DNA of 64,000 nt from Sediminitomix flava. GTDB taxonomy: Bacteria; Bacteroidota; Bacteroidia; Cytophagales; Flammeovirgaceae. A model generated the notes under the pieces. That model saw only the letters and a list, made by a program, of their open reading frames with translations, did not search any database and was not told the DNA's origin. Positions 19,355 to 42,606 of the stretch are shown piece by piece. The stretch covers positions 1-64,000 of the forward strand of contig NZ_QGDO01000008.1 of assembly GCF_003149185.1 (NCBI RefSeq), written 5' to 3'. Position 1 is the stretch's first letter, and every line of letters begins with the position of its first letter. A program made the translations under genes and the position numbers.

Positions 19355-19435
19355 AATATGGTACGATCACTAGTGAAATAGTGAATATGATCACAATACT
19401 AAATGCTTAATTCTTTACCTCAGAAGGGTAGTAGA

Positions 19436-21799
19436 ATGCAAATTATTCTATTACTGTTTTTCAGCTTTGCAGTAAGCAATACAGCAAATGCACAGCAAAA
19501 AAATGTGCTATTTATCATGGCTGATGACTTTAATAACTGGTTAAATAAAACTGGTTATTATCCTGATGCTATCACACCAAATTTGGATGCACTCGCAGAC
19601 AAAGGCGTTCTTTTCACAGATGCACATGCTTCTTCCCCTGTTTGTAATCCTTCTCGAAATGCTATTTGGTCGGGTATTCGACCGTCTACCTCAGGAATTG
19701 ACAATAATAGTGGCGGATACATCCGTGATATTTCAGGTTTTGAAAAGGTGATTACCATGAATGAGCACTTCCAACGCGAGGGCTATCATTTATTTGGAGG
19801 TGGAAAGCTTTATCACCCTGGAAATATGAATAACGAAAAGGCTGATCCGAACAATTGGGATGAGTTGTATAAAAAGGGTACGGGAAGTCCTGGAGGAGCA
19901 TCTTATCAGTGGGCATCTCCAACAGATGCCTTGTTCAAATGGAGTGCAGGAGAGTTTAAGCTTGAAGATGCAAATGATACCAAACTTGCGAATGCCACGG
20001 CAAATTGGATTCAAAGTTACCAAGGAAATAAACCCTTTTTTGCAGCCGTAGGTCTTTTCAGGCCACATTTGCCTTGGAATGCTCATAAGCAATTCTTCGA
20101 TATGTTTTCGCCTAATAACTTGCCTTATCCGAAAGGATATTTAGCCAATGATGACGAAGATGTTCCTACAAATTATAATGGTAGAGAAACATATGAACAA
20201 GTACAGGCTGATGGAAAATACAAAGATGCTTTACGTGCTTATCTGGCAAATATGGCTTATGCCGATTACAATGTTGGAATCATGCTTGATGCCTTAGAAA
20301 ATAGTGTGCATAAGAATAATACAATTGTGGTTTTTATTGGTGATCATGGTTGGCATTTGGGTGAAAAAGATCGTTTTAGTAAACATGCAGTCTTTGATAT
20401 CGCACATCGAACCACTATGATCATCTACGATCCGAGTGCAGCAGACAATGGAAAGAAGTGTACGAAAGTAGTGAGTTTACAAGATTTATATCCAACATTA
20501 GTTGCTTTATGTGGAATCGAAGAGAAGTCAGATATTCAAGGAAATGACATATCTCCGCTATTACGAGATGTAAATGATAATGCTTGGGATAAGCCTATTT
20601 TTATGTCGTATAGTGGGACACAAATTGTCAAAACGAACAAATGGAGATTGATTGATAATGGAAATAATAGTCAGCTCTATGATATAGAAAACGACCCTTA
20701 TGAATGGACTAATCTTTATGGACAAAATGGATATACCGAAAACTCCGCTACAGTAACTTCGCTTCGCTCAGAAATTTCACAAATGTTGCAAGAAGGGAAT
20801 CAACTTTCTGTGGTGAAAGGTTATGGACAAACTGGAAATGGCACAGCTCCTACAGAATATACAGGAGAGGAAAGTCCTTCTCCTTGTAATGGAATTCAAG
20901 ATATCACAGACCTCAGTGCTACGGTCAATTCCTGTTCTGAAATACAACTTTCTTGGTCAGCAATCCCTTGTGCCACACAATACATTGTAAGAAGAAAAGC
21001 AAATGGAGCTACAACTTATACAAATCTAGGAACGGTTGTGCAGAATTCCTTTACGGATACAGATGTACAAGAAAATAACAATTACATCTATCAAGTAAGA
21101 CCTTATGATGGTACCACGAAAAAAGTCTCCAACAACCCAAGTGTAAATACCTCAAACTGTGTTATTCCAACTTCAAGCTTTTTGTATATCGATCATAAAT
21201 CAAGTGGCAAACGCTTGACGGATAGTAATGGCGTAACAACTAAGGGAGTCGGGAATACAGGAAATTGGGTACAATGGGAACAAGTGCCAACAAGCAATGA
21301 CTATTTCTATTTAGTGCTCAGAGCAACGGGTGAAAAATTAGGAAGTTCTGACGGTGAAAATGTTTCAATGTTTGAGGCTTCAAATACTTCTGATCTAGTT
21401 CAATGGAAATGGATTAGGGTGGATAACACTTGGAGTAGATTAGAAAATAAAGCCCATACCCAATGGTTACATGTGAAGCCCGATGGTATTTCCAATATGA
21501 GAATTGGACCATTATCTTGGACAGGAGATAATACACAATGGAAGTATACTTCGGTTTCAAGTAACAGCCGAAAATCTGAAGAATTCGCTATCGAGACAGG
21601 ATTTAGAATAGCACCTAACCCTGCTGGTGATTTATTGTATATCATTGGAGCTAAAACTCAAACAGAAATCAATATCTACAGCTTAGAAGGAAAACATCTA
21701 TTAAAGTCAAAAGGTAAATTGGTTGACATTAGCTCATTAAAAAGAGGACTTTACATCGTTCAGATTGAAGAACATTCACTCCGTCTCATCAAAGAATAA
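19436..21799 (+). CDS. T9SS-secreted S1 sulfatase with Fn3 and lectin-like modules
   Basis: A 787-residue protein: signal peptide (1-19), sulfatase (about 21-470), Fn3-like module (485-578), lectin-like domain (582-708) and T9SS sorting domain (722-787). The catalytic site is Cys70 in PVCNPSRNAIWSG (CxPxR, converted to formylglycine), with metal ligands in MADDFNNW and in GDHGWHLGEKDRFSKH. It is close to the iduronate-sulfatase-like S1_7 group by layout. I chose ATG 19436 over 19403 because it begins the signal peptide and has an AGAAGGG stretch upstream. Its catalytic domain is about 75 percent identical by eye to the N-terminal half of the fusion at 28733-32503. Confidence 0.88.
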   Translation: MQIILLLFFSFAVSNTANAQQKNVLFIMADDFNNWLNKTGYYPDAITPNLDALADKGVLFTDAHASSPVCNPSRNAIWSGIRPSTSGIDNNSGGYIRDISGFEKVITMNEHFQREGYHLFGGGKLYHPGNMNNEKADPNNWDELYKKGTGSPGGASYQWASPTDALFKWSAGEFKLEDANDTKLANATANWIQSYQGNKPFFAAVGLFRPHLPWNAHKQFFDMFSPNNLPYPKGYLANDDEDVPTNYNGRETYEQVQADGKYKDALRAYLANMAYADYNVGIMLDALENSVHKNNTIVVFIGDHGWHLGEKDRFSKHAVFDIAHRTTMIIYDPSAADNGKKCTKVVSLQDLYPTLVALCGIEEKSDIQGNDISPLLRDVNDNAWDKPIFMSYSGTQIVKTNKWRLIDNGNNSQLYDIENDPYEWTNLYGQNGYTENSATVTSLRSEISQMLQEGNQLSVVKGYGQTGNGTAPTEYTGEESPSPCNGIQDITDLSATVNSCSEIQLSWSAIPCATQYIVRRKANGATTYTNLGTVVQNSFTDTDVQENNNYIYQVRPYDGTTKKVSNNPSVNTSNCVIPTSSFLYIDHKSSGKRLTDSNGVTTKGVGNTGNWVQWEQVPTSNDYFYLVLRATGEKLGSSDGENVSMFEASNTSDLVQWKWIRVDNTWSRLENKAHTQWLHVKPDGISNMRIGPLSWTGDNTQWKYTSVSSNSRKSEEFAIETGFRIAPNPAGDLLYIIGAKTQTEINIYSLEGKHLLKSKGKLVDISSLKRGLYIVQIEEHSLRLIKE

Positions 21800-21883: not shown

Positions 21884-24685
21884 ATGAAACAAGTTCTACT
21901 ACTCTGTTTTGTCTTTGTGTTTGCTATTTTTCAGGCAAATGCAACTGTAATTACCTATCCCAGTAATCACTCAGATCAGTATCTACCAACTTCAGATTAT
22001 TATACTGTAACTGTAAAACAAAATGGGAATACTTATAACACCATTGTATACATGAGCGAATCGAATGCCGATAATAACAGTCGTGCTCAATCGATTCTAA
22101 ATAACTCAATTTCTTGGACCAATTTTTCCTTTTCAGGAGCTGTAACGGTTAGAGTTCAATTGAAGTCGGGGCAAAATAAGGTAACATATCCTTCAGCCAG
22201 TATTTTACCGAAAAGTAAAGGGATTACACCTGTCAAAATCAACAACACAACTTTGGAATTCACAATCACAGAGGCAGGGCAATATTCTGTTGAATTTGGT
22301 ACAGATGGCTATGAAAATGGCCTAATGATTTTTGCAGACCCATTAGAGACAAGGTCAGCGCCAACAGGCTCTGATGTCAAAGTTTGTGACCCTTGTAATC
22401 AATCTGACTTAAATAATCTTTCGGGCTATACCGCCGTTCATTTCAAAGATGAATTTCATCCGATTAATACTTGGCAAGTACCGACCAATATCAAAGAAAT
22501 TTATATTGCTGGAGGTGCTGTGGTACGTGGAGCGATTCACTTGATGGATGCAAATAATGATAATACACTCGTACATGGAAGAGGAATTGTTGATGGTGGA
22601 GGACTCTATTATCCTTGGACCTCACTGAAAACACACGGGATGGAAAGTACAACTACAGTTAGTGGTGTTACAGTGGAAGGAATTACATTCTCACAGGCAG
22701 GGGCATTTTTTGTCCGTCTTTTGGGAACCGATAATAAAATGGATTGGATTAAGACCATTGGAGGGTGGAATTTTAACAATGATGGATTGGTCGGCTATAC
22801 AAATACAGAAATCACCAACAGTTTTGTATGGGCCGATGATGATGGAATTAAACTTTATAGGGATAATCAGACAGTAGATAATATCGTTATGTGGCACTTG
22901 GTAAATGGTGCTTGCTTCCAATGGTGTTGGAATTCAGTTTCTGCAAAAAATGTAAGGGTTTCCAACGTAGATATCATTCATGGACAATGGCCAGGAGATG
23001 GACAAAACCAAGGTGTTTTTAATGCAAGAGGTAGCTCTACCACTAGTGGTACGGGTACGCAAACCGATTGGATTTTTACCAATATCAATGTAGATACAGA
23101 GGTTAAAGTATTATTTAATCTCGCTCCCAAAACACCGCATTACATCAATGATATAGAGTTTAATAATATTTCCGCAAAGACAAGTTCGGGGGTAATCAAC
23201 CGCATAGCAGGCTACGATGCAAACCATAAGGTAGATAATGTTCGGATCAATAATTTGGAAATGAACGGGACTTGTATTGATGATGGCAATAAGTCTTCCG
23301 CAGGGAATTTCAGTATTTCAAATGCTACAAATGTTAGTTTTAGCTGTTCGTCTACACCACCAACGGGTAACGATCCAGAAGATATTTCAGACCTTGCGCT
23401 GAGTAATATTTCATGTAATTCGGTCACACTTTCGTGGTCAGATACCAATGGCGAAGATGCTTATCGTATTCGTAGAAAAGTAAGTGGAGAAAGTACTTTT
23501 ACTACCCTTACCGATGTTAGTGCTAATGCCACTTCTTATACCGATGGTAGTGCGGTAGCAAATACTTCTTATGTATATCAAGTTCGCCCAATGGTTGCTG
23601 GAGTTGCAGTGGCAGTGTCGAACCAACCTACGGCAAATACACCAAGTTGTACTGCTACAGGCGTGGTTTTGCCAGCTAAAATAGAAGCGGAAGATTATGA
23701 TAATCAAAGTGGAATTCAAACCGCAGGGACATCGGATGCAGGTGGTGGAGATTATGTAGGTTGGATTGCAACAGGAGATTACATTGAATTTGATGTAGAT
23801 GTACCAACAGCGGGTACTTATGATTTTGCCTATCGAGTAGCCTCGCAAAGTAGCGCAATTAAATTTGACTTAAAAGAAGGAAACAATGTACTCACTTCAG
23901 CAAATGCAGCAACTACAGGAGGATGGCAAGTTTGGAAAACAGAAACAACAACCGTAAATCTTTCTGCGGGAACGCAAACATTACGAATCCTAGCTACTGG
24001 AGGCGGATGGAATATCAATTGGATTGAGTTTACAGAGAGCACACCAAATGTGGGTACGAGCGTTCTTTATATCGATCATAAGGCAAGCGGGATGCGTCTG
24101 ACAGATAGTGGAGGTGTAACGACTAAGGGAACAGGAAATACGGGTGATTGGGTACAATGGGAACAAGTGTCAACAAACAATGGATACTTCTATTTGATTT
24201 TGAAAGGTTCTGGAAGAAAATTAGGCAGTTCAGATGGAATTAATCTTGCAATGTTTGATGCTACGAATACGTCAAATGATGTGCAATGGAAATGGATTTC
24301 GGTGGATGCGACTTGGAATCGATTGGAAAATAGAGCACACACCCAATGGCTACATGTAGGTAGCGATGGAGTGACGAACATGAGAATAGGTCCAACAAGT
24401 TGGACTGGTGATAATACCCAATGGACATATATTCAAGTCAGTAACAATTCTAGGATTGCAAGTACATTCATTGAGGCTAAACCAGAATTAAAGATAGGAC
24501 CTAACCCTACTAAGGATGTTGTGTATGTTTTTGGAGCTACTTTTGATGATATGGTAAATATCTACAGTCTTGACGGAAAACTGAAAGTCCAACAAAAAGG
24601 CTCATCCGTGAATGTAAGTAGTCTTAAAGAGGGCATTTACATTCTGAAGGTGAATTCAGAAACCTTTAAACTCGTCAAAGAATAA
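21884..24685 (+). CDS. GH49-like hydrolase with Fn3, CBM6-like and lectin-like modules, T9SS-secreted
   Basis: A 933-residue protein: signal peptide (1-20), N-terminal beta-sandwich (about 21-170), beta-helix (about 180-485), Fn3-like (about 503-590), CBM6-like (596-715, AEDYDNQSG...WNINWIEF), lectin-like domain (727-852) and T9SS sorting domain (about 869-933). Catalytic candidates are Asp300 (NNDG) and Asp318-Asp320 (WADDDGIKLY). The lectin-like domain is nearly the same as that of the sulfatase just upstream, which suggests both enzymes bind the same target. It is the stand-alone counterpart of the C-terminal half of the fusion at 28733-32503. Confidence 0.82.
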   Translation: MKQVLLLCFVFVFAIFQANATVITYPSNHSDQYLPTSDYYTVTVKQNGNTYNTIVYMSESNADNNSRAQSILNNSISWTNFSFSGAVTVRVQLKSGQNKVTYPSASILPKSKGITPVKINNTTLEFTITEAGQYSVEFGTDGYENGLMIFADPLETRSAPTGSDVKVCDPCNQSDLNNLSGYTAVHFKDEFHPINTWQVPTNIKEIYIAGGAVVRGAIHLMDANNDNTLVHGRGIVDGGGLYYPWTSLKTHGMESTTTVSGVTVEGITFSQAGAFFVRLLGTDNKMDWIKTIGGWNFNNDGLVGYTNTEITNSFVWADDDGIKLYRDNQTVDNIVMWHLVNGACFQWCWNSVSAKNVRVSNVDIIHGQWPGDGQNQGVFNARGSSTTSGTGTQTDWIFTNINVDTEVKVLFNLAPKTPHYINDIEFNNISAKTSSGVINRIAGYDANHKVDNVRINNLEMNGTCIDDGNKSSAGNFSISNATNVSFSCSSTPPTGNDPEDISDLALSNISCNSVTLSWSDTNGEDAYRIRRKVSGESTFTTLTDVSANATSYTDGSAVANTSYVYQVRPMVAGVAVAVSNQPTANTPSCTATGVVLPAKIEAEDYDNQSGIQTAGTSDAGGGDYVGWIATGDYIEFDVDVPTAGTYDFAYRVASQSSAIKFDLKEGNNVLTSANAATTGGWQVWKTETTTVNLSAGTQTLRILATGGGWNINWIEFTESTPNVGTSVLYIDHKASGMRLTDSGGVTTKGTGNTGDWVQWEQVSTNNGYFYLILKGSGRKLGSSDGINLAMFDATNTSNDVQWKWISVDATWNRLENRAHTQWLHVGSDGVTNMRIGPTSWTGDNTQWTYIQVSNNSRIASTFIEAKPELKIGPNPTKDVVYVFGATFDDMVNIYSLDGKLKVQQKGSSVNVSSLKEGIYILKVNSETFKLVKE

Positions 24686-27194: not shown

Positions 27195-28673
27195 CTAGCT
27201 CGAATGCTTCTTGACTTTATGCCATTTATTTTCTGTTCGCATAACATCTTCAAATTTTCGAGGAACTTCCAATCTTCCGCCTGTAGAAGGCGCCCATTGT
27301 TTGGGTAGTTCTTCAGATAGTTCATCCATAATTATTCTAGAGCCTTTTTTTGGGGCGATGTTCTCAAACTCGTAAGGGTCGGTGGAATGATCATAAAGTT
27401 CTTCTGTGCCATCGGGGTATCTGATATATCTGTATCGCTCTGATCTAACACTTGTATAGTCCTTACCATAAACAGTCAACGAAGGATAATCCCATTCTTT
27501 ATTGGGGTTTTCAAGCAAAGGAACAATACTATTTCCATCAAGAGAATGATTTGGTTTTTCTAGTCCACAAAGCTCGATTAATGTAGGATAAATATCTACC
27601 AAACTGATGGTAGCTGAGCTTTCAGCCTGTTTCTTTTCAGGTGTTCGTACCATAAAAGGAACATAATCAGATTGATCCCAAAGTGTGGCTTTTTGCCAAC
27701 GAAGTTTTTCCCCACAATGATAACCATTGTCTGACCAAAAAATAACGATGGTGTTATCAGCGTAAGGACTATTATCCAAAGCCTCAATCACTCGACCTAC
27801 ATTCCAATCTGCAAAAGAGGTATTTGCAGCGTATCCGTAAAGGAATTTTTGCCAAAGCTCATCATAAGCATAGTTTAGCTTCTTGTTTTTAAATTGTTTC
27901 AATGAGTCTACAAGCATAGTTCCTAAATAAGGGACATCATCTAAATCTCCATCTTTATAACCTTTTGGGCGAGTAAACTCTTTTTCGTTATAGGGTTCAA
28001 AGAAACGTTTTGGAGCAGTGTAAGGTGTATGAGGTCGCCACAAACCGTAGTACATTAAGAATGGTTTATCATGTTTTTGCGCCAAGAATTCGACAGCAAG
28101 ATCACCATTAATGTTATCTGGAAAATCGCTGTCTTCACCTTCCCAAGCTTGAATACCTTTAAACTTGTTTCCGTATTGATGCTCCTTATCAGGAAAAGGG
28201 CCAAAGCCATTACCACCTCTGTTATGGTTGTCCCACATAGCCTTTTCTCTTTCGGGAGTTAAAGGATTGTGTAAAATCTTCCCTCTTCCCCAAGTGATAT
28301 AGCCTTGGTGCTTGAAATATGCTGGAAAACTCTGAATCTCTTTTAGGATTGGCGAACGGTTCCAACCATCACTTCCATTGAGGTACGCGCCAGTATTGTG
28401 CGGTAAAATACCACTGAAAAATGATGCACGAGATGGGTTACAGACAGGAACATTGCAGGCAGCATTTGTAAAATTGATACTTTCTGATCGTAATTTATCG
28501 ATGTATGGTGTTTGGAACATCGGATAACGATCCTTCACTGCATACCCATTCATGTCATCCACACAGATAAGTAAGATATTTGGACGCGTTTTGGTATTTT
28601 CTTTCTGTTTACAACTACTGATCACTGTAAAAAGAAGACTACATAAAAGGATAGAGGAGAGAAGGGATTTCAT
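27195..28673 (-). CDS. S1 sulfatase, lipoprotein (iduronate-sulfatase-like)
   Basis: A 492-residue sulfatase with a lipoprotein signal (hydrophobic 8-18, lipobox ending SSC at Cys21). The formylglycine site is Cys78 in VPVCNPSRASFFSG. Metal-site motifs are ICVDDMNGY at the start and FWSDNGYHCGEKLRWQKATLWDQSD later. The layout is of the iduronate-2-sulfatase-like S1_7 group. I chose the ATG at 28673 over one at 28703 because the longer start would lie inside the terminator hairpin of the gene upstream and the signal peptide begins here. It follows the sulfatase-GH49 fusion in the same direction and may act on the same glycan after it. Confidence 0.85.
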   Translation of the reverse strand: MKSLLSSILLCSLLFTVISSCKQKENTKTRPNILLICVDDMNGYAVKDRYPMFQTPYIDKLRSESINFTNAACNVPVCNPSRASFFSGILPHNTGAYLNGSDGWNRSPILKEIQSFPAYFKHQGYITWGRGKILHNPLTPEREKAMWDNHNRGGNGFGPFPDKEHQYGNKFKGIQAWEGEDSDFPDNINGDLAVEFLAQKHDKPFLMYYGLWRPHTPYTAPKRFFEPYNEKEFTRPKGYKDGDLDDVPYLGTMLVDSLKQFKNKKLNYAYDELWQKFLYGYAANTSFADWNVGRVIEALDNSPYADNTIVIFWSDNGYHCGEKLRWQKATLWDQSDYVPFMVRTPEKKQAESSATISLVDIYPTLIELCGLEKPNHSLDGNSIVPLLENPNKEWDYPSLTVYGKDYTSVRSERYRYIRYPDGTEELYDHSTDPYEFENIAPKKGSRIIMDELSEELPKQWAPSTGGRLEVPRKFEDVMRTENKWHKVKKHSS

Positions 28674-28690
28674 ATTTTTAGGCATAAAGA

Positions 28691-28724
28691 AATCCCTCAG
28701 CATGAAATGAAATACTGAGGGATT
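28691..28724 (-). terminator. Terminator of the sulfatase-GH49 fusion gene
   Basis: AATCCCTCAG pairs with CTGAGGGATT; read on the - strand it is followed by TCTTT. It lies between two same-direction genes. Confidence 0.7.
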
Positions 28725-28732: not shown

Positions 28733-31700
28733 TTAATTTTTAATAAATTGAAAGCTATCTGAGGAAGTTCGCAAAATATAAACACCGCTATGCAGATGAC
28801 TTAAATTGAGTTGGAGCTCCTTTTTAGCTTTTGATTTGTTTGAAAAAGTATCAATTAAAGCCCCTTCAAAAGTATAAATATCCACGCGAGTACCCTGTGG
28901 CAGCCCTTGTATATTTAGGGTGTCTTGTACAGGACATGGATAAAAGTGAAGCCCACTTCTTGCTTCCAAAAGATCACTATGGGTCACGACTGAACAATTT
29001 GCTAAATCAACAGAAACACTATTGGAGGCGTAGGCTTCATTTTCAGAAAAGACGGCGTACAGTTGGTAACTGTAGGTTTTATCACTTTCAATAGTTTCAT
29101 CGATAAAAGCTGAAATGTTTTGAGCCAATTCTGCCATCAGTTCAAAAGAACCTTCAGTACCTTCTTTACGCATTAATCGATAACTTTCTTCTTCTGTTAA
29201 ATCAGTCCAACTAAGGTGTATTTCTTCACAATCATTTTCGATGGTAGCACCTAGTGTATTTACTGTTTTAGAAGGAGGACTTGGGCATGAAAAGGTTATA
29301 TTAGTTGTATGTTCTAACTTGAATTTGCCCTCTGTAGCAGATGAGACACAGTTTCCATTTAGCTCCAAACCCACAAAAGAGATGTTTTCAACCGCATAAT
29401 TTGCAGAACTTCCCGCCAATCGATTAATCACATCGCTTGTTACTTCTGCTTTCACATTCTTGAACACCATATTTTTAATCTTATGGTTAAATTGTGGGGC
29501 TAGATTGAATAAAACTTTAACAGGAGTATCTACATTTATATTCTCAAACGTCCAATCTTGTTGTGTTTTAATCGCCTCTTCATCCCCGTTAGAACTTCCT
29601 CGGCAGTTAAAAACACCTTGGTTTTGTCCATCTCCAGGCCATTGTCCATGAATGATATCCACATTTCTGACAAGCACATTTTTAGCTTCAACAGAGTTCC
29701 AAGCCCACTGGAAACATCCGCCGTTTACAAGATGCCACATGACGATATTTTCCACCAATTGATTGTCACGATAAAGCTTAATTCCATCGTCATCGGCCCA
29801 AACAAAACTATTTGAAATATGCGTATTTTTGTAGCCAACTAAACCGTCATTATTGAAGTTCCATCCCCCAATGGTCTTTATCCAATCCATTTTATTTTCT
29901 GTACCCAAAAGGCGCACAAAGAAAGCTCCTGCTTGAGATAGTGTTATGCCTTCTACGGTGACTCCACTTACTTGTCCATTGCTTTCTAGGCCATGTGTTT
30001 TTAGGGTTGTCCAAGGGTAATATAAACCTCCTCCGTCAATGATACCTCTACCATGAATTAGGGTATTGTCATTGTCTGTATCAAACATATGCAAAGCCCC
30101 TCTCACTACAGCACCCCCTTCTATATAGACTTCTTTGATGTTATTCGGAATGTTCCAAGTATTAATGTCATGTAGATTGTCTTTGAAAACAATGGCATCA
30201 AAGGCACTTAGCTCTGTTAAATCATTTTGGTTACAAGGATCACAAATTTTAGTAGAATTACCTTCTGGAACAGGGCGTGTTTCCATCGGATCGGCAAAGA
30301 TCATCAGTCCGTTTTTATACCCGTCTGCACCAAATTCAACAGAGTATTGTCCAGCTTCAGTCAAACGAAAATCTAGGGTTCGTTCATTTACTTTAGCCAA
30401 TTGCACATCCTTACGTTTTGGGAGAATTTCAGCAAAAGGATAAGTCACTTTAGTTTGTCCGTTTTTAAGTCTTACCCGTACGATCGCAGAGCCTGAAAAC
30501 GAGAAATTCGTCCAAGAAATAGAATTATTTAAAATCTCTTTTGACCTTGAATTATCATCTGCATTTGACTGACTTTTGTAAACCGTTGTAGCTAAAGTAT
30601 CACCATCCTGAATAACACTTACTTCATAAATATCGGATACAGGTAAGAATTCATAGGAATTGTCGGAAGGGTATGTAACAAGTTCACCTGTCGCCTCCTG
30701 AAGTTTGGTATTTGGATCTGTAGGATTTTGTTCCTCGTCGTCATCTTCATCACAAGCAGTAATGCTAAGTTCAGGGTTATTGGAAACCATTTTGTTTGTA
30801 CCATCGAATGGGCGTACTTGATAAATGTAATGAACTCCAATTTCAACACTTGAATCTACAAATGAATTTGCTCCTTCGCTTTTGTTCCCTAGATTAAGAT
30901 AAGTAGCATCGCCATCTTTTTTTCTACGGACAATGTATTCAGTTGCACAAGGATCGGGAGTCCAGGAAAGAGTAACTTCTTGACAAGCTGTACGTGTGGC
31001 CGATAAATCCGTAAGATTTGCAATACCTTCGCACTCTGTAGTTGATTTTCCCGTATAAATTGTAGGTGCAGTTCCATCTCCAGCTTGTCCATTTCCTTGA
31101 TTGATTCGGATTTGGTTACCCTCTACCAACATGCTATTGATCTGAGATTTTAAAGATGTCACCACTTGGCTGTTAGAAGTAAATCCTTCAGTTCCGTATA
31201 AATTCGTCCATTCGTAAGGATCGTTTTCAATGTCATAAAGCTGGCTTTGATCACCTTTATCAACGTAACGCCATTTGTTGGTTTTGATGATATTTTGATC
31301 GCCATAGCTCATAAAAATAGGCTTATCCCAAGAAGTATCATTAGCATCAGCCAAGAGCGGACTCAAGTCGTTACCTTGAGCATCTGATTTTGTATCTAAA
31401 CCACAAAGGGAAACTAGAGTGGGATATAAATCTTGTAAGCTGACTACTTTTTGACATACTTTTCCATTACCTTCTGCGCTCGGGTTGTAAATAATCAAAG
31501 TTGTATGATGAGCGATATCAAAAACCGCATGTTTGCTGAAACGGTCTTTTTCGCCCAAATGCCAACCATGATCGCCTAAAAATACGATAATCGTATTATC
31601 CTTAAACTTACTCTCATTAAGTGCATCTAACATAATTCCTACATTATGATCTGCGTAAGTCATATTTGCAAGGTATGCACGTAAAGCCTCTTGATACACC

Positions 31701-32503
31701 CCATCGGCTATGACATCTTTATAATTTTGCGTGCCATTGTAACTAGCTTTTATATCATCTGCATCATTGGTCAAATACCCTTTCGGAGTAGGTAGGTCAT
31801 CTGGATTAAACATGTCGAAGAACTGTTTGTGCGCATTCCATGGCAAATGCGGTCGGAATAGGCCTATAGCCGCAAAAAAAGGTTTTTCACCTTCATATTC
31901 ACTTATCCATTTGGCCGTAGCATTGGCCAACTTCGTATCACCAGTGGTATTTAGGTCAAATTCTCCTGCACTCCACTTAAATAAGCCATCTGTTTCAGAT
32001 TCCCATTTATAAAAAGAACCACCATTACTTCCTGTTCCATCTACGTATAACTCAGACCAGTTATTTGGGTCAACTTCTTCTCCTTGCATTTTACCCGGAT
32101 GGTAAAGTTTTCCACCACCAAAAACATGATAGCCGTTTTGTTTGAAGTATTCGTTCATCGTAATGACCTTCTCAAATCCTGCCTTATCACGAATATACCC
32201 ATCGCCATTACTGCTAATTCCAGAGGTAGAGGGTCTAATGCCTGACCAAATCGCATTACGAGAAGGATTACAGACTGGAGAAGAGGCATGAGCATCGCTG
32301 AATAGTACGCCTTTATCCGCTAAAGCATCTAAGTTAGGGGTAATTGATTCAGGATAGTAACCAATTTTTTTTAGCCAATGGTTGAAGTCATCAGCCATTA
32401 TAAATAGCACATTTTTCTGCTCTTGTGCATGAGCAGGTATCGTAGTTATTCCTATAAAAAGAATGAACCACAACATTCTATTTTTGAGAAATATTCTTAG
32501 CAT
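28733..32503 (-). CDS. Bifunctional fusion: S1 sulfatase plus GH49-like hydrolase, T9SS-secreted
   Basis: A 1256-residue protein: signal peptide (1-26), sulfatase (about 28-490), Fn3-like (about 500-590), an acidic linker (DEDDDEEQNP), GH49-like beta-sandwich and beta-helix (about 605-1074), a second Fn3-like module (about 1080-1165) and a T9SS sorting domain (about 1184-1256). Both active sites look intact: Cys78 in PVCNPSRNAIWSG, and Asp886 (NNDG) with Asp904-Asp906 (WADDDGIKLY). Each half closely matches one of the two adjacent genes at 19436-21799 and 21884-24685, in the same order. The CBM6-like and lectin-like modules of those genes are absent. No frameshift or internal stop is present. 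It would remove sulfate and cleave the chain in one secreted polypeptide. Confidence 0.88.
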   Translation of the reverse strand: MLRIFLKNRMLWFILFIGITTIPAHAQEQKNVLFIMADDFNHWLKKIGYYPESITPNLDALADKGVLFSDAHASSPVCNPSRNAIWSGIRPSTSGISSNGDGYIRDKAGFEKVITMNEYFKQNGYHVFGGGKLYHPGKMQGEEVDPNNWSELYVDGTGSNGGSFYKWESETDGLFKWSAGEFDLNTTGDTKLANATAKWISEYEGEKPFFAAIGLFRPHLPWNAHKQFFDMFNPDDLPTPKGYLTNDADDIKASYNGTQNYKDVIADGVYQEALRAYLANMTYADHNVGIMLDALNESKFKDNTIIVFLGDHGWHLGEKDRFSKHAVFDIAHHTTLIIYNPSAEGNGKVCQKVVSLQDLYPTLVSLCGLDTKSDAQGNDLSPLLADANDTSWDKPIFMSYGDQNIIKTNKWRYVDKGDQSQLYDIENDPYEWTNLYGTEGFTSNSQVVTSLKSQINSMLVEGNQIRINQGNGQAGDGTAPTIYTGKSTTECEGIANLTDLSATRTACQEVTLSWTPDPCATEYIVRRKKDGDATYLNLGNKSEGANSFVDSSVEIGVHYIYQVRPFDGTNKMVSNNPELSITACDEDDDEEQNPTDPNTKLQEATGELVTYPSDNSYEFLPVSDIYEVSVIQDGDTLATTVYKSQSNADDNSRSKEILNNSISWTNFSFSGSAIVRVRLKNGQTKVTYPFAEILPKRKDVQLAKVNERTLDFRLTEAGQYSVEFGADGYKNGLMIFADPMETRPVPEGNSTKICDPCNQNDLTELSAFDAIVFKDNLHDINTWNIPNNIKEVYIEGGAVVRGALHMFDTDNDNTLIHGRGIIDGGGLYYPWTTLKTHGLESNGQVSGVTVEGITLSQAGAFFVRLLGTENKMDWIKTIGGWNFNNDGLVGYKNTHISNSFVWADDDGIKLYRDNQLVENIVMWHLVNGGCFQWAWNSVEAKNVLVRNVDIIHGQWPGDGQNQGVFNCRGSSNGDEEAIKTQQDWTFENINVDTPVKVLFNLAPQFNHKIKNMVFKNVKAEVTSDVINRLAGSSANYAVENISFVGLELNGNCVSSATEGKFKLEHTTNITFSCPSPPSKTVNTLGATIENDCEEIHLSWTDLTEEESYRLMRKEGTEGSFELMAELAQNISAFIDETIESDKTYSYQLYAVFSENEAYASNSVSVDLANCSVVTHSDLLEARSGLHFYPCPVQDTLNIQGLPQGTRVDIYTFEGALIDTFSNKSKAKKELQLNLSHLHSGVYILRTSSDSFQFIKN

Positions 32504-32773: not shown

Positions 32774-34606
32774 ATGATACATAGAAAATTGACTTATTTG
32801 ACTTTTGCTCTTTTAGTAATGCTGTCAACTATTTCAGTCTTGAATGCTCAAGAATGGAAGAAAGCTGAAGCACCACTAGAAACAGTTTGGGCATCAAAAG
32901 TAGATACAGATTCGGTTTTACCTGAATACCCTAGACCTATTCTCCAACGAAAAGACTGGATGAATTTAAATGGTATTTGGGAATTTCAAGAGGCTGAATT
33001 ATCAGATAGAGTTCCTTTCAAAACTTTATTAGATGAGAAGATACTTGTACCGTATCCTATCGAATCAGCCATGTCTGGTGTTCGTAGACAACTAAAAAAT
33101 CATAGAGCTTGGTATAGAAGAACTTTTGATATTCCAAAAGATAAAGCATGGAAAGATAAAGAGTTCATTCTTCATTTTGGTGCGGTAGATTATGAAGCAG
33201 TTGTTTACGTAAATGGACGTTGTGCAGGTCAGCACAAGGGCGGTTATGATGCTTTTAGTTTCAATATCACATCTTTCCTTGAAGAAGAAGGTGAGCAAGA
33301 ACTCATTGTTCACATTTATGATCCAGGAAATATAGAAGGCATCGCAATTGGGAAACAAAATAATGAACGCTTCTCTGATCCACAAAGATATACTTATAGC
33401 TCATCTTCGGGAATTTGGCAAACAGTTTGGATTGAGCCTGTAAGTAAGAGCTACATTAAAGATTTACACATAACGAATGATATAGACCATAAAACGATTA
33501 CGGTCAAAGCAATTCCTGAATCTCAAAGAAATAGTCATGATGTATTTGTGGCTGTAAAAGAGGAAGGCCGAATTGTGGCAACTGCTCGAGGAAAAGTAAA
33601 TAGGGATATTGAATTAGCTATCCAATATCCAAAGCTATGGTCGCCAGATGCCCCATTTTTATATGATGTAGAATTAATTTTGATGGATTCTAATAAGGTT
33701 TTAGATCGAATTCAAAGTTATACGGGAATGCGTAAAATAGCCTTGGGAGAAGGGGTAAAAGGATTAAAAGTGATTGAACTTAACAACAAAGCCATTTTCC
33801 AAATGGGGCCATTAGATCAAGGATATTGGCCTGATGGAATTTATACGGCTCCAACAGATGAGGCTTTGAAGTGGGATGTAGCTCAGATCAAAGAATTTGG
33901 TTACAATATGATCCGAAAGCATATCAAAATAGAACCGCAAAGATGGTACTATTGGTGTGACAAATTAGGCATTTTGGTATGGCAGGATATGCCGAATACG
34001 TTCAAGCAAAGAACAGAGGAGGAGAAAACTTTATTTGAGGTTGAACTACAAGAAATGGTGAAAGAACATTGGAACCATCCTTCTATCATTAATTGGGTGG
34101 TGTTCAATGAGCATTGGGGAATTTATGATCCAGTCCGATTGACTGAAATGGTGATGGCATTAGACTCACACCGTCTTGTTACAGGAAATAGTGGTATTGA
34201 TGCGGGTAAGCCCAATATTGACTATGAGGTAGGTCACATAAAAGATAATCATTCATACCGTCCGCCGAATGTCCCTTTTGTAACTCAAAAAAGAGCTTCA
34301 GTTTGTGGAGAATATGGAGCGATCGGGTATAAAGTTAAAGGGCATATCTGGGATGTCGATGGACCTTGGGTACACCATAATTACAAAGGACTTGAAGATG
34401 CTACAAGCGAGTATGAGAAGTTTATCCAACAGATTGTAGACTTCAAAAAAGAAGGACTTAGCGCAGCCGTTTACACACAATGGACGGATGTTGAGAATGA
34501 AATGAATGGAATTTATACCTATGATCGTAAGGTCATTAAACTAGATAAAGAACGTGTCAAGAGGGCAAACCTTTCGACTTATCAAAAAACTGACAAACCA
34601 TTATAA
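32774..34606 (+). CDS. GH2 family glycoside hydrolase
   Basis: A 610-residue protein with a signal peptide (1-25, ending LNAQ). GH2 layout: jelly-roll sugar-binding domain (about 45-215, with RAWYRRTFDIP and YDAFSFNITSFL), an Ig-like domain (about 225-310) and a TIM barrel (about 320-600). Acid/base is Glu446 in NWVVFNEHWG and nucleophile Glu513 in SVCGEYGA. GH2 covers beta-galactosidases, beta-glucuronidases and others; the downstream hexuronate genes make a glucuronidase possible but unproven. It is the first gene of a tight operon: the next starts 3 nt after its stop, and the third 2 nt after that one. Confidence 0.85.
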   Translation: MIHRKLTYLTFALLVMLSTISVLNAQEWKKAEAPLETVWASKVDTDSVLPEYPRPILQRKDWMNLNGIWEFQEAELSDRVPFKTLLDEKILVPYPIESAMSGVRRQLKNHRAWYRRTFDIPKDKAWKDKEFILHFGAVDYEAVVYVNGRCAGQHKGGYDAFSFNITSFLEEEGEQELIVHIYDPGNIEGIAIGKQNNERFSDPQRYTYSSSSGIWQTVWIEPVSKSYIKDLHITNDIDHKTITVKAIPESQRNSHDVFVAVKEEGRIVATARGKVNRDIELAIQYPKLWSPDAPFLYDVELILMDSNKVLDRIQSYTGMRKIALGEGVKGLKVIELNNKAIFQMGPLDQGYWPDGIYTAPTDEALKWDVAQIKEFGYNMIRKHIKIEPQRWYYWCDKLGILVWQDMPNTFKQRTEEEKTLFEVELQEMVKEHWNHPSIINWVVFNEHWGIYDPVRLTEMVMALDSHRLVTGNSGIDAGKPNIDYEVGHIKDNHSYRPPNVPFVTQKRASVCGEYGAIGYKVKGHIWDVDGPWVHHNYKGLEDATSEYEKFIQQIVDFKKEGLSAAVYTQWTDVENEMNGIYTYDRKVIKLDKERVKRANLSTYQKTDKPL

Positions 34607-34608: not shown

Positions 34609-37600
34609 ATGAGAATTATTCTACACTATACATTACTCTTATTCACTTTTATAGCTCCAAGCTTTGCATTGGCTCAATTGGAGACGGTTTCGTGGCCTGA
34701 AAGCCAAGATGTACTTTCTGATCGTTACCGAGTACGTATGCGATTAGTAAATAGTACAGGCGACTCGCAATGGAAAGATGTAGAGACTTTGATGTCTATT
34801 CCTAGAAATTATGATGTGGAAAAACATGGTTTCCCTGCTGAAGATTTTAAAATGGAAGGAAATGAGTTAATCCATAAAATTGCAGGTGGAGATGCGTGTA
34901 CGGACTTCTTAGAGGATAGAAATCTATCTTTTATTCCTTTTGCCTTTGAAGGTAAAATAGAAGTTGAAGTTACAAAGTTATATGGTGAAAGTGCAGAACG
35001 AGTAGAAATCACACCGAGTGCATTCGAAATCAATCCACATTATTTCACAGGGAAAACGGTCCGTTTTTTTATGGAAAAACCAGAATATATTTCTGTAAAT
35101 TTTGTGGCTAACGATAATAAAGACAATGATCGTTTCAATGGATTTAACATCAAGTATGGTTTGATGTTATTCGGTGATCAATTAGAAAAAAATGCGGCTT
35201 ATTCAATTCCTAGTCCAACAGGTTCTGGAGTTGTTGTTTGGGATAATGACTTAGATTTGGATGTAATCTTGAATGCAGACATTATTTATTTTCCTCCGGG
35301 TGATCACAAAATGAAAGATCATAAAGAGAATAATAATGAATGGATCAAAGACGCTAGTTTAGAAAAGTCACTTCCTCTTTACCACGGTCAGTTACGATTG
35401 AGAAAAGAAGGGCAGAAAGTCTACATTGCACCTGGTGCTTACGTTAGAGGTGCTTTTAATGCAAATGGCAATAAAAATTGTTGGCTTTACGGAAGAGGAA
35501 TTATTTCTGGTCGTGATTATTTGATGCATGAAATTATTCATTACGATGGAGAACAAAGTAATGGTGTTTGGATTCAGACTACTCAGACAAAAGCAGCTTT
35601 CTGTCACTTTTCTGATGGCGCTCAATATCATGGTGTGATTTTTAAAGAAGCTTTCCACCATACTTGTCCGAGCGGAAAAAATACAACAATCAGAGATATC
35701 AAAATTATCGGGTGGTGTTCAAATAATGATGGTATCAGACCTTCTAGAGATAGTAATGTAGATCATATTTTCATTAAGACAAGTGATGATTATGATTATG
35801 CACGTGATGATCATAGTGTTACAAATTCTGTATTCTGGCCAGGCGTAAATGGAGCAATCGGTATGTTGGGATGGGGAAATTTGGGTAGCGGTTATGCCAA
35901 ATATAAAAATAACTACCTGATCAATAGCGAATGGAGTAGTGAGAATAAGAAAAATACAGGATTTATTGGTTCTGTGGCTGATGATGGCATCAAGCTAGAA
36001 AATAATATTATTGAAAATCTAAACATTGAAAGTCCGACAGCCTACTTAGTAAATGCTACTTTAGAAAATAAGAATAATTATAAAGAAGGTTATTTACGAA
36101 ACTTCCTTTTCAAGAACATAAAAACAAGTCATCCTTTTATGTTACCGAATGGTACTTTTGTAAAACAAGACATGAAAGGGCTGAAAAATAATTGGATTGA
36201 AGGATGGGTATTTACCAATCTTGTTGTTGGTGGGGAACTTGTAACTTGGGAAAATTATAAAGACTACTTTGATCTTAACCTTGTAGGAGATAATGGGACA
36301 AATGTAGATGAAAAGAATTGGGTTAGAAATATCACTTTCAATTCTCAAGGAGATATTCATGAAATTACAGTTACTTCCAATCAAGGTGGTACTTTTGCCC
36401 CACAAGGAAAAGACAGATTGATCGATTGCCCAAGTGGAACAGATCAAACGTTTTTCTTTACACCAAATGAGGGCTACAAAATAAAAGAAGTATTATTGGA
36501 TGGTGTAAGTCAAGGACATATCCAATCTTTGCACTTGGCAAATGTAACAGCCAATCATGAGATTGAAGTGATTTTTGAAGCAGGTGAAAATGTGTTTGAC
36601 AATTCTCCATTTTCTGCTCCAGATTGTACGAATCTTCAAGGGATTGGTCAATTAGGTGCAAGTCATGCCGATTGTGATTATGTATTTTTAGAATGGGGAG
36701 CAGACCCTTGTGCTACTTCTTATATTGTGAAGAAAAGACTCAAAGATACTGGCGATTTTCAAGAAATAGGAACTACAGAAAGTGCCTTCTTCAGAGATGA
36801 AGACATTGAGGAAAATACGACCTATGAATATGTAGTTGTATCTCAAAATGATTCAGAAGAAAAAGAATCATCAATTATGCAGTTGATCATGGAAGAATGT
36901 GGAACGCAAGCTTGTACATTTCAAGATATCGATCAACTAGATTTAAAAATAAAGAACTGTGGAGAAGTTCAACTATCATGGTCATCGCAAAGATGTGTTG
37001 AAAACTACATTGTAGAAAGAAAAGAAGAGGGTGAGGCTGAGTTTTCAATTTTGGAAACGATTACAGAAACTTCTTATACAGATACTAATGTGGTTGAGGG
37101 AGTGACTTATACTTATCAAATTAAGCCCGTTTTCGGTGAACTTGTTGGTTCTTCTGCTCAACCAACGATTGTAATTCCGGCGTGTATTTCGGGTAGTTAT
37201 TTCCAATTAATCAATAAAGTATCTGGACATGTTTTAAGACCTTTTAGCCAAGAACAATCTGCCATTGCTCAAATCGAAATCAGTGCTGCCGATGTTTGGT
37301 CAGTTTGGAAAATGGAACCCCAAGGAGCTGGTTTTGTCAGTTTTAAAAATATGAATACAGGCAAATACTTGAGTATGCTTAGTGATGTTGAAGGAGAAAA
37401 TATTACAACGAGTCTGAGTGCTGGAAATAATGAAAAGTGGGAGATTATTTATTCATATGATGGCTATTTTAGATTGTATAATCCTTCTATTCAACGATAT
37501 ATAAGAGCCAAAAGTACCGAAGAAATGCTCAATCAACCCAATGGGGAAATTTGGGTAGAAGTAAGTTCAAAATATGAAGAAGATGATCTTATGCAATGGA

Positions 37601-37860
37601 CCGTAGCTTCGGTTTCTTATGCCGATTATATTACGTCCTCAGATGATCAATTGAGAGAAAATAAGGTTTCCCCAAACCCTATACAAGATTATATAGATTT
37701 GATCTATGACTTACCCTCTTTTGACCGATACATTTATTCTGCATCGGGTACTTTGGTCAAACGTTTTGGGGTGAATCAAAAGTTGGATGTAAGAAACTTA
37801 TCTTCTGGTCTATACATTTTAGTCTGCGGAAATGAAAGGTATAAATTTGTGAAAAACTAA
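34609..37860 (+). CDS. GH49-like multidomain hydrolase, T9SS-secreted
   Basis: A 1083-residue protein: signal peptide (1-23), beta-sandwich (about 24-210), beta-helix (about 215-560), a bacterial repeat-like module (588-661), two Fn3-like modules (678-764 and 768-861), a beta-trefoil or lectin-like domain (861-1001) and a T9SS sorting domain (1019-1083). The GH49-type acids are Asp374 (NNDGIRPS) and Asp393-Asp394 (KTSDDYDY). It resembles the gene at 13488-15659 more than the other two in its N-terminal half. It is translationally close to GH2 upstream and to the next gene, so the three probably act together. Confidence 0.8.
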   Translation: MRIILHYTLLLFTFIAPSFALAQLETVSWPESQDVLSDRYRVRMRLVNSTGDSQWKDVETLMSIPRNYDVEKHGFPAEDFKMEGNELIHKIAGGDACTDFLEDRNLSFIPFAFEGKIEVEVTKLYGESAERVEITPSAFEINPHYFTGKTVRFFMEKPEYISVNFVANDNKDNDRFNGFNIKYGLMLFGDQLEKNAAYSIPSPTGSGVVVWDNDLDLDVILNADIIYFPPGDHKMKDHKENNNEWIKDASLEKSLPLYHGQLRLRKEGQKVYIAPGAYVRGAFNANGNKNCWLYGRGIISGRDYLMHEIIHYDGEQSNGVWIQTTQTKAAFCHFSDGAQYHGVIFKEAFHHTCPSGKNTTIRDIKIIGWCSNNDGIRPSRDSNVDHIFIKTSDDYDYARDDHSVTNSVFWPGVNGAIGMLGWGNLGSGYAKYKNNYLINSEWSSENKKNTGFIGSVADDGIKLENNIIENLNIESPTAYLVNATLENKNNYKEGYLRNFLFKNIKTSHPFMLPNGTFVKQDMKGLKNNWIEGWVFTNLVVGGELVTWENYKDYFDLNLVGDNGTNVDEKNWVRNITFNSQGDIHEITVTSNQGGTFAPQGKDRLIDCPSGTDQTFFFTPNEGYKIKEVLLDGVSQGHIQSLHLANVTANHEIEVIFEAGENVFDNSPFSAPDCTNLQGIGQLGASHADCDYVFLEWGADPCATSYIVKKRLKDTGDFQEIGTTESAFFRDEDIEENTTYEYVVVSQNDSEEKESSIMQLIMEECGTQACTFQDIDQLDLKIKNCGEVQLSWSSQRCVENYIVERKEEGEAEFSILETITETSYTDTNVVEGVTYTYQIKPVFGELVGSSAQPTIVIPACISGSYFQLINKVSGHVLRPFSQEQSAIAQIEISAADVWSVWKMEPQGAGFVSFKNMNTGKYLSMLSDVEGENITTSLSAGNNEKWEIIYSYDGYFRLYNPSIQRYIRAKSTEEMLNQPNGEIWVEVSSKYEEDDLMQWTVASVSYADYITSSDDQLRENKVSPNPIQDYIDLIYDLPSFDRYIYSASGTLVKRFGVNQKLDVRNLSSGLYILVCGNERYKFVKN

Positions 37861-40159: not shown

Positions 40160-41275
40160 ATGAACATGACTATTTTCGTTATATTTAGAAAATTAACTTT
40201 TACAGTAGTATTTGGTGTCATTTTATTAGCATGTACACCCAAGCCTCATCAACTACAAGGAAGTATTGAAGAAGGAAATGCTAGTAAAAATCAAATCAGT
40301 AAAAAAGAACAATTGGAGCAACGCAAAGAAGCGGTTCATCTGATGGATGGTGTATGGATGCGTGACCCTTTTATTCATTTGGCAAAAGATGGTTATTATT
40401 ATTTGTCTTGTACTAGACGAAATAGTGATTATCCCTCAGCAGAAGCAGCTATGCAATTTTACCGAAGTGCTGATTTGGTAGATTGGGAAGATCTCGGAGT
40501 TCAATTCGATTATAGAGATTATCAATGGGCGAAAGAGCTAGACCGTAAAAGTAAAGAGAGAGGTAAAACACCAATGATTTGGGCTCCAGAAATCTATCAA
40601 GTTGATAATAAATGGTTGGTGTTGAGCACCTCAAATCTTCAATCGGGTACTTTGATGCGCTCGAAAGGCAATGCGCTGGAAGGACCTTTTGAAGAAATAT
40701 TCAAAGGATTTGGTCATCAACATGATCCTGCATTATTCTTTGAGGAAGGAAAAACGTGGCTAGTCTCTAAATGTGCTGAAATTAGAGCTTTGAAACCTGA
40801 CTTCTCGGGTTATGAGGGTGAAACCATTAAGATTGGACCGAGTGATCGTAAGCTTGGCCATGAGGGGTGTTACATCTTCAAAATAGACGATAAGTATGTG
40901 CTATTCGGGACGGCTTGGAGTACCGACCAGATGCGTAAAGGTTCTTACAATTTATATTATTGCACTGCCGATCAACTCACTGGACCTTATGGCCCTCGCA
41001 AATTCGCAGGACGTTTTATGGGACATGGAACACCCTTTCAAGATAAAGAAGGGAAATGGTGGTGTACGGCTTTCCTAAATGGTACTTACACCAGTCGTGA
41101 AGCTGTAGATGCAGGAAAAGCAGACAATGGAGAGAAGGCATATACCATAAATAAGCAAGGACTCACACTTGTTCCGATGGACATCCGAAAAGAGAACGGA
41201 GAGATTGTAGTTGAGGTCTACGATTCACTTTACGCAAAACCAGGAAAAGAAGAAGTTCAAAACTTCAATTTATAA
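40160..41275 (+). CDS. GH43-like five-bladed propeller lipoprotein (1)
   Basis: A 371-residue protein with a lipoprotein signal (lipobox LLAC, Cys25). Propeller acids: Asp in MRDPFIHLAKDGYYYLS (general base), Asp in HQHDPALFFEE (pKa modulator) and Glu in GHEGCYIFKIDDKYVLFGT (general acid). WAPEIYQVDNKWLV is also typical of GH43 and related clan GH-F/J enzymes. The substrate may be an arabinose, xylose, galactose or anhydro-galactose end group. It is followed 20 nt later by a second propeller lipoprotein, with which it likely forms an operon. Confidence 0.75.
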   Translation: MNMTIFVIFRKLTFTVVFGVILLACTPKPHQLQGSIEEGNASKNQISKKEQLEQRKEAVHLMDGVWMRDPFIHLAKDGYYYLSCTRRNSDYPSAEAAMQFYRSADLVDWEDLGVQFDYRDYQWAKELDRKSKERGKTPMIWAPEIYQVDNKWLVLSTSNLQSGTLMRSKGNALEGPFEEIFKGFGHQHDPALFFEEGKTWLVSKCAEIRALKPDFSGYEGETIKIGPSDRKLGHEGCYIFKIDDKYVLFGTAWSTDQMRKGSYNLYYCTADQLTGPYGPRKFAGRFMGHGTPFQDKEGKWWCTAFLNGTYTSREAVDAGKADNGEKAYTINKQGLTLVPMDIRKENGEIVVEVYDSLYAKPGKEEVQNFNL

Positions 41276-41295
41276 AAGCATCTAACCCCATAGCT

Positions 41296-42441: not shown

Positions 42442-42606
42442 AACTATTTAAGGAAGATATTTAAGATCATAGTTTATGGGGACATGAAGTTTGATGTTGT
42501 GGAGGCTACAGAGAACGGATTGATCCCTATAAGCTTTTTTATTTTCTCATTTTTGAGGAGAGGTAGATTGAAATCATTAGCATAAATAAGTGTAGAACAT
42601 AAGTGA

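What the first reader, a model, noticed from the sequence alone, without database searches (positions are those of the whole stretch)
28733..32503. Sulfatase and GH49-like hydrolase fused in one secreted protein
Both catalytic sites look complete (Cys78; Asp886 and Asp904-906), with one signal peptide and one T9SS tail. Fusing desulfation with chain cleavage suggests the hydrolase needs a freshly desulfated site. I know of no characterised enzyme with this layout.
Basis: partly seen in the sequence, partly recalled or inferred. Interest (0 to 1): 0.82.

Follow-up and report, generated by a model that had tools for sequence, protein, structure and literature searches.

The report
Sulfatase and sugar-chain cutter fused together
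A bacterium carries one secreted protein that joins a sulfate-removing enzyme to a sugar-chain-cutting enzyme, and it also keeps the two as separate neighbouring genes, so nature has supplied a ready-made pair for testing whether joining them helps.

Summary
Window 28733-32503, MINUS strand, is one 1256-aa frame: signal sequence, S1 sulfatase, fn3-like domain, acidic linker, GH49-like beta-helix, fn3-like domain, T9SS tail. Both active sites are kept in relatives (C78; D886, D905, D906; D904 is not conserved). For each half, fused and split copies are sisters, and the junction shows a tandem pair that was fused. No other fusion was seen in 33 related loci or in the genomes sampled.

Most likely both enzymes act on one sulfated, pentose-rich algal polysaccharide (my guess: green-algal sulfated L-arabinan) and the fusion co-delivers and tethers them. 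Nothing shows that the hydrolase needs the site desulfated by its own partner; the surviving split pair, and orthologues with other partners, argue against obligate coupling.

The layout has a characterised precedent, P36 of Formosa agariphila (S1_25 + GH78). S1_7-like + GH49-like did not turn up elsewhere in my searches. Verdict: new variant of a known kind.

The parts
28733..32503 (-). Fusion gene, 1256 aa: signal sequence - S1 sulfatase - fn3-like - acidic linker - GH49-like - fn3-like - T9SS tail
32426..32503 (-). Signal sequence, residues 1-26 (cut after AHA by eye; no lipobox Cys)
   Evidence: read; no predictor was available
31109..32422 (-). S1 sulfatase domain, residues 28-465, closest solved relative the S1_7 ulvan sulfatase 6hhm
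32270..32272 (-). Codon of C78 (formylglycine site, CNPSR)
   Evidence: the role of the Cys is established knowledge of family S1
30755..31021 (-). fn3-like beta-sandwich, about residues 495-583, homologous to the one in the split sulfatase gene
   Evidence: alignment; strands; no Pfam fn3 match
30686..30754 (-). Acidic linker, residues 584-606, the junction; low model confidence
29234..30679 (-). GH49-like domain, Ig-like N part plus beta-helix, about residues 609-1090
29846..29848 (-). Codon of D886 (catalytic triad)
29786..29791 (-). Codons of D905-D906 (catalytic triad)
28988..29230 (-). Second fn3-like domain, about residues 1092-1172
   Evidence: alignment; no Pfam fn3 match
28745..28942 (-). 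T9SS type A sorting domain, residues 1188-1253
19403..21799 (+). Split sulfatase paralogue (798 aa): sulfatase - fn3-like - ricin-like - T9SS tail; 74% to the fusion's sulfatase
   Evidence: fn3-like by alignment, ricin-like by eye
21884..24685 (+). Split GH49-like paralogue (933 aa): GH49-like - fn3-like - CBM6 - ricin-like - T9SS tail; 66% to the fusion's hydrolase; 84 bases behind the split sulfatase
   Evidence: ricin-like by eye
27195..28703 (-). Second sulfatase directly downstream of the fusion on the same strand (gap 29 bases); other clade
32774..34606 (+). GH2 enzyme of the same cluster; relatives in Phocaeicola plebeius and Flavilitoribacter (63%)
34609..37860 (+). Further GH49/beta-helix-like protein with a ricin-type lectin domain
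13488..15659 (-). Further GH49-like protein with T9SS tail
40160..44379 (.). Three GH43 genes of the cluster (40160 +, 41296 +, 42658 -)
16119..18949 (+). Transaldolase and transketolase genes beside the cluster (pentose use)

Best explanation
A secreted two-enzyme protein made by fusing a tandem sulfatase - GH49-like gene pair. Shown by sequence: one frame, one T9SS tail, two conserved active sites, and sister relation of each half to an unfused tandem pair 4 kb away. Shown by model only: separate folds joined by a low-confidence, probably flexible acidic linker. Inferred: the S1_7-like half removes a sulfate ester after anSME-type maturation of C78, and the GH49-like half cuts an axial glycosidic bond with an Asp triad. 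Also inferred: both act on one algal cell-wall polysaccharide, most likely a sulfated pentan such as the beta-L-arabinopyranans of Codium or Cladophorales. The gain is delivery at 1:1 and tethering on the same polymer, not an obligate hand-over between the two sites.
For: One frame and domains. Active sites invariant in 10 sulfatase and 32 GH49-like rows. Both halves constrained: sulfatase dN 0.20 against dS 2.19 (dN/dS 0.09); hydrolase pN 0.23 with synonymous sites saturated. The 94 positions around the triad are 89% identical to the split copy, against 56-68% elsewhere. The junction joins the fn3 end of a sulfatase gene to the residues that begin the mature split hydrolase. Trees: fused and split copies are sisters, 99/99 and 96/98. 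The split pair has the same order and an 84-base gap. Only one in-frame start codon (ATG, residue 572) lies in residues 471-660, with no signal sequence behind it by eye, so the hydrolase half should not be exported alone. Model: most 10-residue blocks of both enzyme domains at pLDDT about 80-97, linker about 32, pTM 0.52; Foldseek finds S1_7 6hhm and GH49 6nzs/3wwg. anSME in the genome, 493 bits against cut-off 349; T9SS PorP/SprF family, 9 places over cut-off. Arabinose lead: the same genome's contig-10 GH49-like gene lies in one cluster with GH43, a sulfatase and L-arabinose isomerase; transketolase and transaldolase lie beside this cluster. Sulfated beta-L-arabinopyranans exist in green algae (PMC7550628, passages).
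Against: No activity is known to me for any close relative of either half. The GH49 Pfam match is marginal, no GH49 catalytic-domain model was returned, and identity to solved GH49 enzymes is 17-20%. Parts of the sulfatase domain are modelled poorly (several blocks at 40-52) and so is the stretch before the first fn3-like domain. L-arabinose isomerase is on another contig, beside a GH49-like gene only 31-34% identical. The best solved relative of the sulfatase half acts on ulvan xylose-2-sulfate, so a xylose-containing polymer is possible. The window shows no SusC-like ORF. No expression evidence. A relative-rate test gave faster change of the fused hydrolase with one outgroup (p 0.0006) but not with two others (p 0.4, 0.59).
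Confidence: 0.55

Rival explanations
1. Ordered hand-over: the sulfatase half clears a sulfate and the attached hydrolase half cuts at exactly that site.
For: P36 of Formosa: the sulfatase domain desulfates the non-reducing end and the GH78 domain then removes that sugar (PMC8511951 passages), so desulfate-then-cut has a precedent. A GH110 of the same fold class is thought to need prior desulfation (PMC7939477 passages).
Against: The halves have other partners elsewhere and an unfused pair survives in the same genome. The linker is of low confidence in the model and pTM is 0.52, so no docking of the two enzymes is predicted with confidence. Order cannot be read from sequence.
Confidence: 0.2
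2. Reverse order: the GH49-like half is endo-acting and cuts the sulfated chain first; the sulfatase half then trims sulfates at the new chain ends.
For: Solved GH49 relatives include dextranases, and dextranase of GH49 is described as endo-acting (PMC10316084 passages). I recall, but could not read, that a GH49 is listed in CAZy as active on sulfated arabinan. Some sulfatases act at chain ends (P36_S1_25).
Against: The best solved relative of the sulfatase half, P18_S1_7, is listed as endo-acting. GH49 also holds exo-acting enzymes. Nothing here measures either.
Confidence: 0.2
3. One half has lost catalysis and serves as a binding or targeting module.
For: The fused hydrolase is on a longer branch than the split one (0.35 against 0.13) and changes faster with one of three outgroups.
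Against: Cys-x-Pro-x-Arg and the Asp triad are intact, the triad region is 89% identical to the split copy, and constraint is strong in both halves. Where the other rows agree (4 others for the hydrolase, 3 for the sulfatase), the fusion differs at 9 and 10 positions, none of them C78, R82 or the triad.
Confidence: 0.08
4. Same enzyme logic but another substrate: ulvan, a sulfated xylan or galactan, or a fucose polymer.
For: Sulfatase half closest to the ulvan S1_7 sulfatase 6hhm. GH2 and GH27-type genes in the cluster could fit galactose. The stretch next to the window looks like fucose use (by eye).
Against: None of the 28 of 40 window ORFs (150 aa or more) given to Pfam matched a polysaccharide lyase, GH78, GH105 or GH88 family. 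The cluster has 3 GH43 genes and pentose-phosphate genes.
Confidence: 0.35
5. Assembly chimera or sequencing error that joins two genes.
For: The two halves also occur as separate genes nearby. Third-position GC is lower in the fn3/linker stretch (0.22) than in the two enzyme domains (0.34, 0.31).
Against: Halves differ from the split genes by 26% and 34% of residues with near-saturated synonymous sites, so it is no chimera of them. The frame is open for 1283 codons, well inside a 254-kb contig, and overall GC shows no step at the junction.
Confidence: 0.02

Closest known systems
P36 of Formosa agariphila (S1_25 sulfatase + GH78 alpha-L-rhamnosidase, ulvan)
   Same: Sulfatase and glycoside hydrolase on one chain in a marine Bacteroidota; characterised, and the two domains act in consecutive steps (PMC8511951 passages). 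A review says the same pairing is reported for N. ulvanivorans (PMC8360166 passages).
   Different: Other sulfatase subfamily and other GH family and fold. Here an unfused paralogous pair is kept beside the fusion.
P18_S1_7 of Formosa agariphila (6hhm)
   Same: Closest solved structure to the sulfatase half by sequence, profile and fold.
   Different: Sulfatase acting on xylose-2-sulfate in ulvan (PMC9096561 passages); about 25% identical; no GH49-type half known to me.
GH49 dextranase AoDex (6nzs) and isopullulanase (1wmr, 3wwg)
   Same: Beta-helix enzymes whose Asp triad aligns with this one.
   Different: Act on alpha-glucans; 18-20% identical; no sulfatase attached in the solved chains.
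GH49-like genes of Fulvivirga MAG, Catenovulum maritimum and Alteromonas aestuariivivens
   Same: Same clade as the hydrolase half (56%, 51%, 45%).
   Different: None is fused to a sulfatase.

Membership tests
Type I (S1) sulfatase | Alkaline-phosphatase-type sulfatase domain | tested here: met
   PF00884 131 bits, cut-off 25; Foldseek's first hits are sulfatases
Type I (S1) sulfatase | C-x-P-x-R signature matured to formylglycine | tested here: met
   CNPSR at 78-82; C78 and R82 invariant in 10 rows; metal-site type residues D38, D39, D311, H312 present (roles recalled). The modification itself was not tested
Type I (S1) sulfatase | Maturing enzyme in the genome | tested here: met
   anSME 493 bits over cut-off 349. 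The 3 FGE-domain hits at E 1e-20 or better lack the FGE Cys pair (motif recalled) and look like GldK, GldJ and an EgtB-like protein (my reading)
SulfAtlas subfamily S1_7 | Clusters with S1_7 members | tested here: inconclusive
   Best solved hit is S1_7 6hhm (4.8e-90 by profile); choline- and iduronate-2-sulfatases follow at 2e-65 to 2e-64; no SulfAtlas models were available
GH49 | Ig-like N domain | tested here: met
   PF17433 21.7 bits, cut-off 21.3: just met
GH49 | Beta-helix catalytic domain homologous to GH49 enzymes | tested here: met
   profile hits 6nzs 3e-56, 1wmr 2e-47, 1ogm 1e-37; pectin-lyase-like and GH28-type chains only 4e-7 and weaker. No Pfam GH49 catalytic-domain match was returned
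GH49 | Three catalytic Asp residues | tested here: met
   D886, D905, D906 invariant in 32 rows and aligned to 6nzs and 1wmr; roles recalled
GH49 | Assignment by CAZy, activity | not testable with these tools
   no dbCAN models, no assay; hence 'GH49-like'
P36-type sulfatase-GH78 protein | Sulfatase and GH on one chain | tested here: met
P36-type sulfatase-GH78 protein | S1_25 sulfatase and GH78 domain | tested here: not met
   sulfatase nearer 6hhm (S1_7) than 6hr5 (P36), and the hydrolase is a GH49-type beta-helix
P36-type sulfatase-GH78 protein | The two domains act in consecutive steps | not testable with these tools
   needs enzyme assays
T9SS cargo | Signal sequence and C-terminal sorting domain, T9SS in the genome | tested here: met
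   PF18962 41.7 bits over 27; TIGR03519 at 9 places over cut-off; signal sequence by eye

The most novel reading that the evidence does not exclude
A self-contained 'desulfate and cut' enzyme for green-algal sulfated beta-L-arabinopyranan, in which tethering lets the GH49-like half act at sites just cleared by the sulfatase half, evolved by fusion beside a retained unfused pair that handles differently sulfated or solubilised chains.
Probability: 0.12. Interest if true: 0.7.

Novelty: new variant of a known kind. Interest (0 to 1): 0.45.

Why it matters
Few sulfatase-glycosidase fusions are characterised to my knowledge; P36 was called the first multimodular enzyme of ulvan breakdown. Here fused and unfused copies of the same two enzymes sit in one genome, so the value of tethering can be tested with natural controls. 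Both halves belong to clusters whose substrate I could not find described, with a lead towards sulfated arabinans. A related gene set occurs in the gut species Phocaeicola plebeius.

Tried and rejected
Reading on the plus strand: many stops. Assembly chimera of the split genes: rejected. GH28 as the family of the hydrolase half: several plasmid relatives are annotated so, but the profile puts GH49 far ahead.

Search for fusions elsewhere, all negative within these limits. Hydrolase half in 18, 390 and 395 genomes: only the own genome matched at the set thresholds. Profile searches: 9 of 395, 4 of 18 and 8 of 395 genomes matched (the samples overlap, and in the large samples only the best 3-4 candidates of a genome were scored). 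Of 6 frames of 780 aa or more in other genomes, 5 were checked and lack the sulfatase signature; the sixth, a second copy in G017 with the same score and frame length as a checked one, was not fetched. Sulfatase half in 355 genomes: 4 matched, longest frame in another genome 908 aa, read by eye as sulfatase with fn3- and CBM6-like parts. 33 genome-contig loci: 0 frames with both halves; in 2 of them (L059, L069) the hydrolase frame is cut at its 5' end by the contig, so a fusion there is not excluded. Plasmids: 11 records with the hydrolase half, all under 60% identity; two were opened and are unfused at the best match. Phages: 0. A first genome-contig scan with two close sequences found nothing. 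Faster evolution of the fused hydrolase: not robust.

Papers: searches. None of the listings showed a sulfatase-GH49 protein; some lists were capped (25 of 162, 15 of 22, 12 of 783) and the library lacks most subscription journals, so this is not proof of absence. Rows dropped: hydrolase rows under 130 bits and sulfatase rows under 180 bits were left out of the alignments.
Full report
WHAT IS THERE. The minus strand of 28733-32503 is one open frame of 1256 aa starting with ATG. In order it holds a hydrophobic signal sequence (by eye), an S1 sulfatase (30-458 by Pfam), an fn3-like domain, a short acidic linker, a GH49-like hydrolase, a second fn3-like domain and a T9SS sorting domain (fn3-like parts by alignment to the neighbours, since Pfam gave no fn3 match for this protein). 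Against solved structures the N half is nearest the ulvan sulfatase P18_S1_7 (6hhm, 2.3e-42; profile 4.8e-90) and the C half matches GH49 isopullulanase and dextranase (7e-18 and 1.3e-17; profile 3e-56). An AlphaFold model of residues 27-1185 gives pLDDT of about 80-97 to most blocks of both enzyme domains, 40-52 to several blocks of the sulfatase, low values to the stretch between sulfatase and fn3-like domain, and about 32 to the linker. pTM is 0.52, so no fixed docking is predicted with confidence. Foldseek finds 6hhm for one domain and 6nzs/3wwg/1wmr for the other.

BOTH ACTIVE SITES ARE KEPT. C78 and R82 of CNPSR are invariant in 10 sulfatase rows. D886, D905 and D906 are invariant in 32 GH49-like rows and line up with the Asp residues of solved GH49 enzymes. 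D904 is shared only with the split paralogue; the other rows printed have N, M or S there. The genome has an anaerobic-type sulfatase maturase. Three FGE-domain proteins lack the Cys pair of a true FGE and look like GldK, GldJ and an EgtB-like protein (motif and family guesses mine). T9SS PorP/SprF family proteins occur at 9 places.

On the plus strand of the same window lie a separate sulfatase (19403-21799, 74% identical over the domain) and, 84 bases on, a separate GH49-like enzyme (21884-24685, 66%). They carry the same order of activities with their own signal sequences (by eye) and T9SS tails, plus a CBM6 in the second and a shared ricin-like part (by eye, no Pfam match). Trees put the fused and split sulfatases together (99/99) and the fused and split hydrolases together (96/98) (13 and 16 rows). 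The junction runs from the end of the sulfatase gene's fn3-like domain through an acidic linker to residues that match the mature start of the split hydrolase. The simplest reading is that a tandem pair was duplicated and one copy lost the tail of the first gene, the gap and the signal peptide of the second. Direction (split to fused) is inferred from the unfused orthologues: sulfatase 65% in G590 and hydrolase 56%, 51% and 45% in Fulvivirga, Catenovulum and Alteromonas. The event is old: synonymous sites are near or at saturation, while amino-acid change is held back (sulfatase dN/dS 0.09; hydrolase pN 0.23 with pS 0.80). The region round the Asp triad is 89% identical against 56-68% elsewhere, which suggests a like substrate for both copies.

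HOW RARE. No other fusion turned up: 0 of 33 loci from the species-wide collection (in L059 and L069 the hydrolase frame is cut at its 5' end), and none seen in the family, order, class and phylum samples (with long frames checked, one of six not fetched). With the close sequence as query, the family, order and class searches matched only the own genome. Neighbourhood is common though: in 8 of the 33 loci a sulfatase gene that resembles this one (E 1e-8) follows the GH49-like gene directly on the same strand. Partners differ: the Fulvivirga hydrolase sits beside a sulfatase only 39.8% like this one, and the G590 sulfatase beside a GH49-like gene of about 26-28% identity.

SUBSTRATE. Of the window's 40 ORFs of 150 aa or more, 28 were scanned with Pfam. 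They include 3 GH43, a GH2, a GH27-type, a GH5-type, five sulfatase-domain genes counting the fusion, and transketolase and transaldolase; two further GH49-like proteins came. Related sets occur in Phocaeicola plebeius (GH2 63%, GH43 68%, GH27-type 44%), Alteromonas aestuariivivens and Catenovulum adriaticum. In this same genome a more distant GH49-like gene on contig 10 lies in one cluster with GH43, a sulfatase and L-arabinose isomerase, and a Persicobacter plasmid has a like GH43 - GH49-like pair (by eye). Green algae make sulfated beta-L-arabinopyranans: 3-linked with C-2/C-4 sulfate in Codium, 4-linked with C-3 or C-2,3 sulfate in Cladophorales (PMC7550628 passages). Beta-L-arabinopyranose has the ring configuration of alpha-D-galactopyranose, so its axial bond suits GH49- and GH27-type enzymes (my inference). 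I recall a GH49 listed as active on sulfated arabinan but could not read the source. I hold a sulfated arabinan or arabinogalactan as the best guess, at about 0.5.

HOW IT WORKS. Shown: single reading frame with one sorting tail, two intact sites. Predicted: a flexible joint. Inferred: both halves act on one polymer and tethering raises local action. Not shown: order, or any need of one half for the other. The combination S1_7-like + GH49-like appears new, as far as the searches above reach.

Noticed in passing
37862-39979 (+): 705-aa protein with only sub-cut-off Pfam and NCBIfam matches; 41% identical relative in the Alteromonas aestuariivivens cluster near its GH49-like gene. Possible unrecognised glycan-active family.
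   Followed up: partly
L093 12374-18237 (own contig 10): GH49-like, GH43, sulfatase and L-arabinose isomerase in one cluster; a GH43 - GH49-like pair of the same kind lies on a Persicobacter plasmid (by eye).
   Followed up: partly
L051 (Phocaeicola plebeius DSM 17135): Gut bacterium with GH2 (63%), GH43 (68%), GH27-type (44%), sulfatases and a GH49-like gene like those of this window; a possible marine-to-gut transfer that was not examined further.
   Followed up: no
window 1-64000: No SusC-like ORF was recognised although the cluster resembles a polysaccharide utilisation locus: the only ORFs over 900 aa are the fusion and two GH49-like proteins. An MFS transporter lies at 52171-53454. 12 of 40 ORFs were not scanned, among them the 485-aa ORF at 4969-6426.
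   Followed up: partly
own genome: The 3 FGE-domain proteins found at E 1e-20 or better lack the FGE Cys pair, but an anaerobic-type maturase is present, so the genome's Cys-type sulfatases may rely on it.
   Followed up: partly
24994-25698 (+): Free-standing 234-aa protein whose only Pfam match is the GH115 C-terminal domain; relatives beside other GH49-like loci (L050, L063, L067).
   Followed up: no
L091 2569-8621 (own contig 8, just beyond the window): By eye a fucose-use set: fucose permease-like, dehydrogenases, amidohydrolase and a GH29-like protein, so the region may serve more than one sugar.
   Followed up: no
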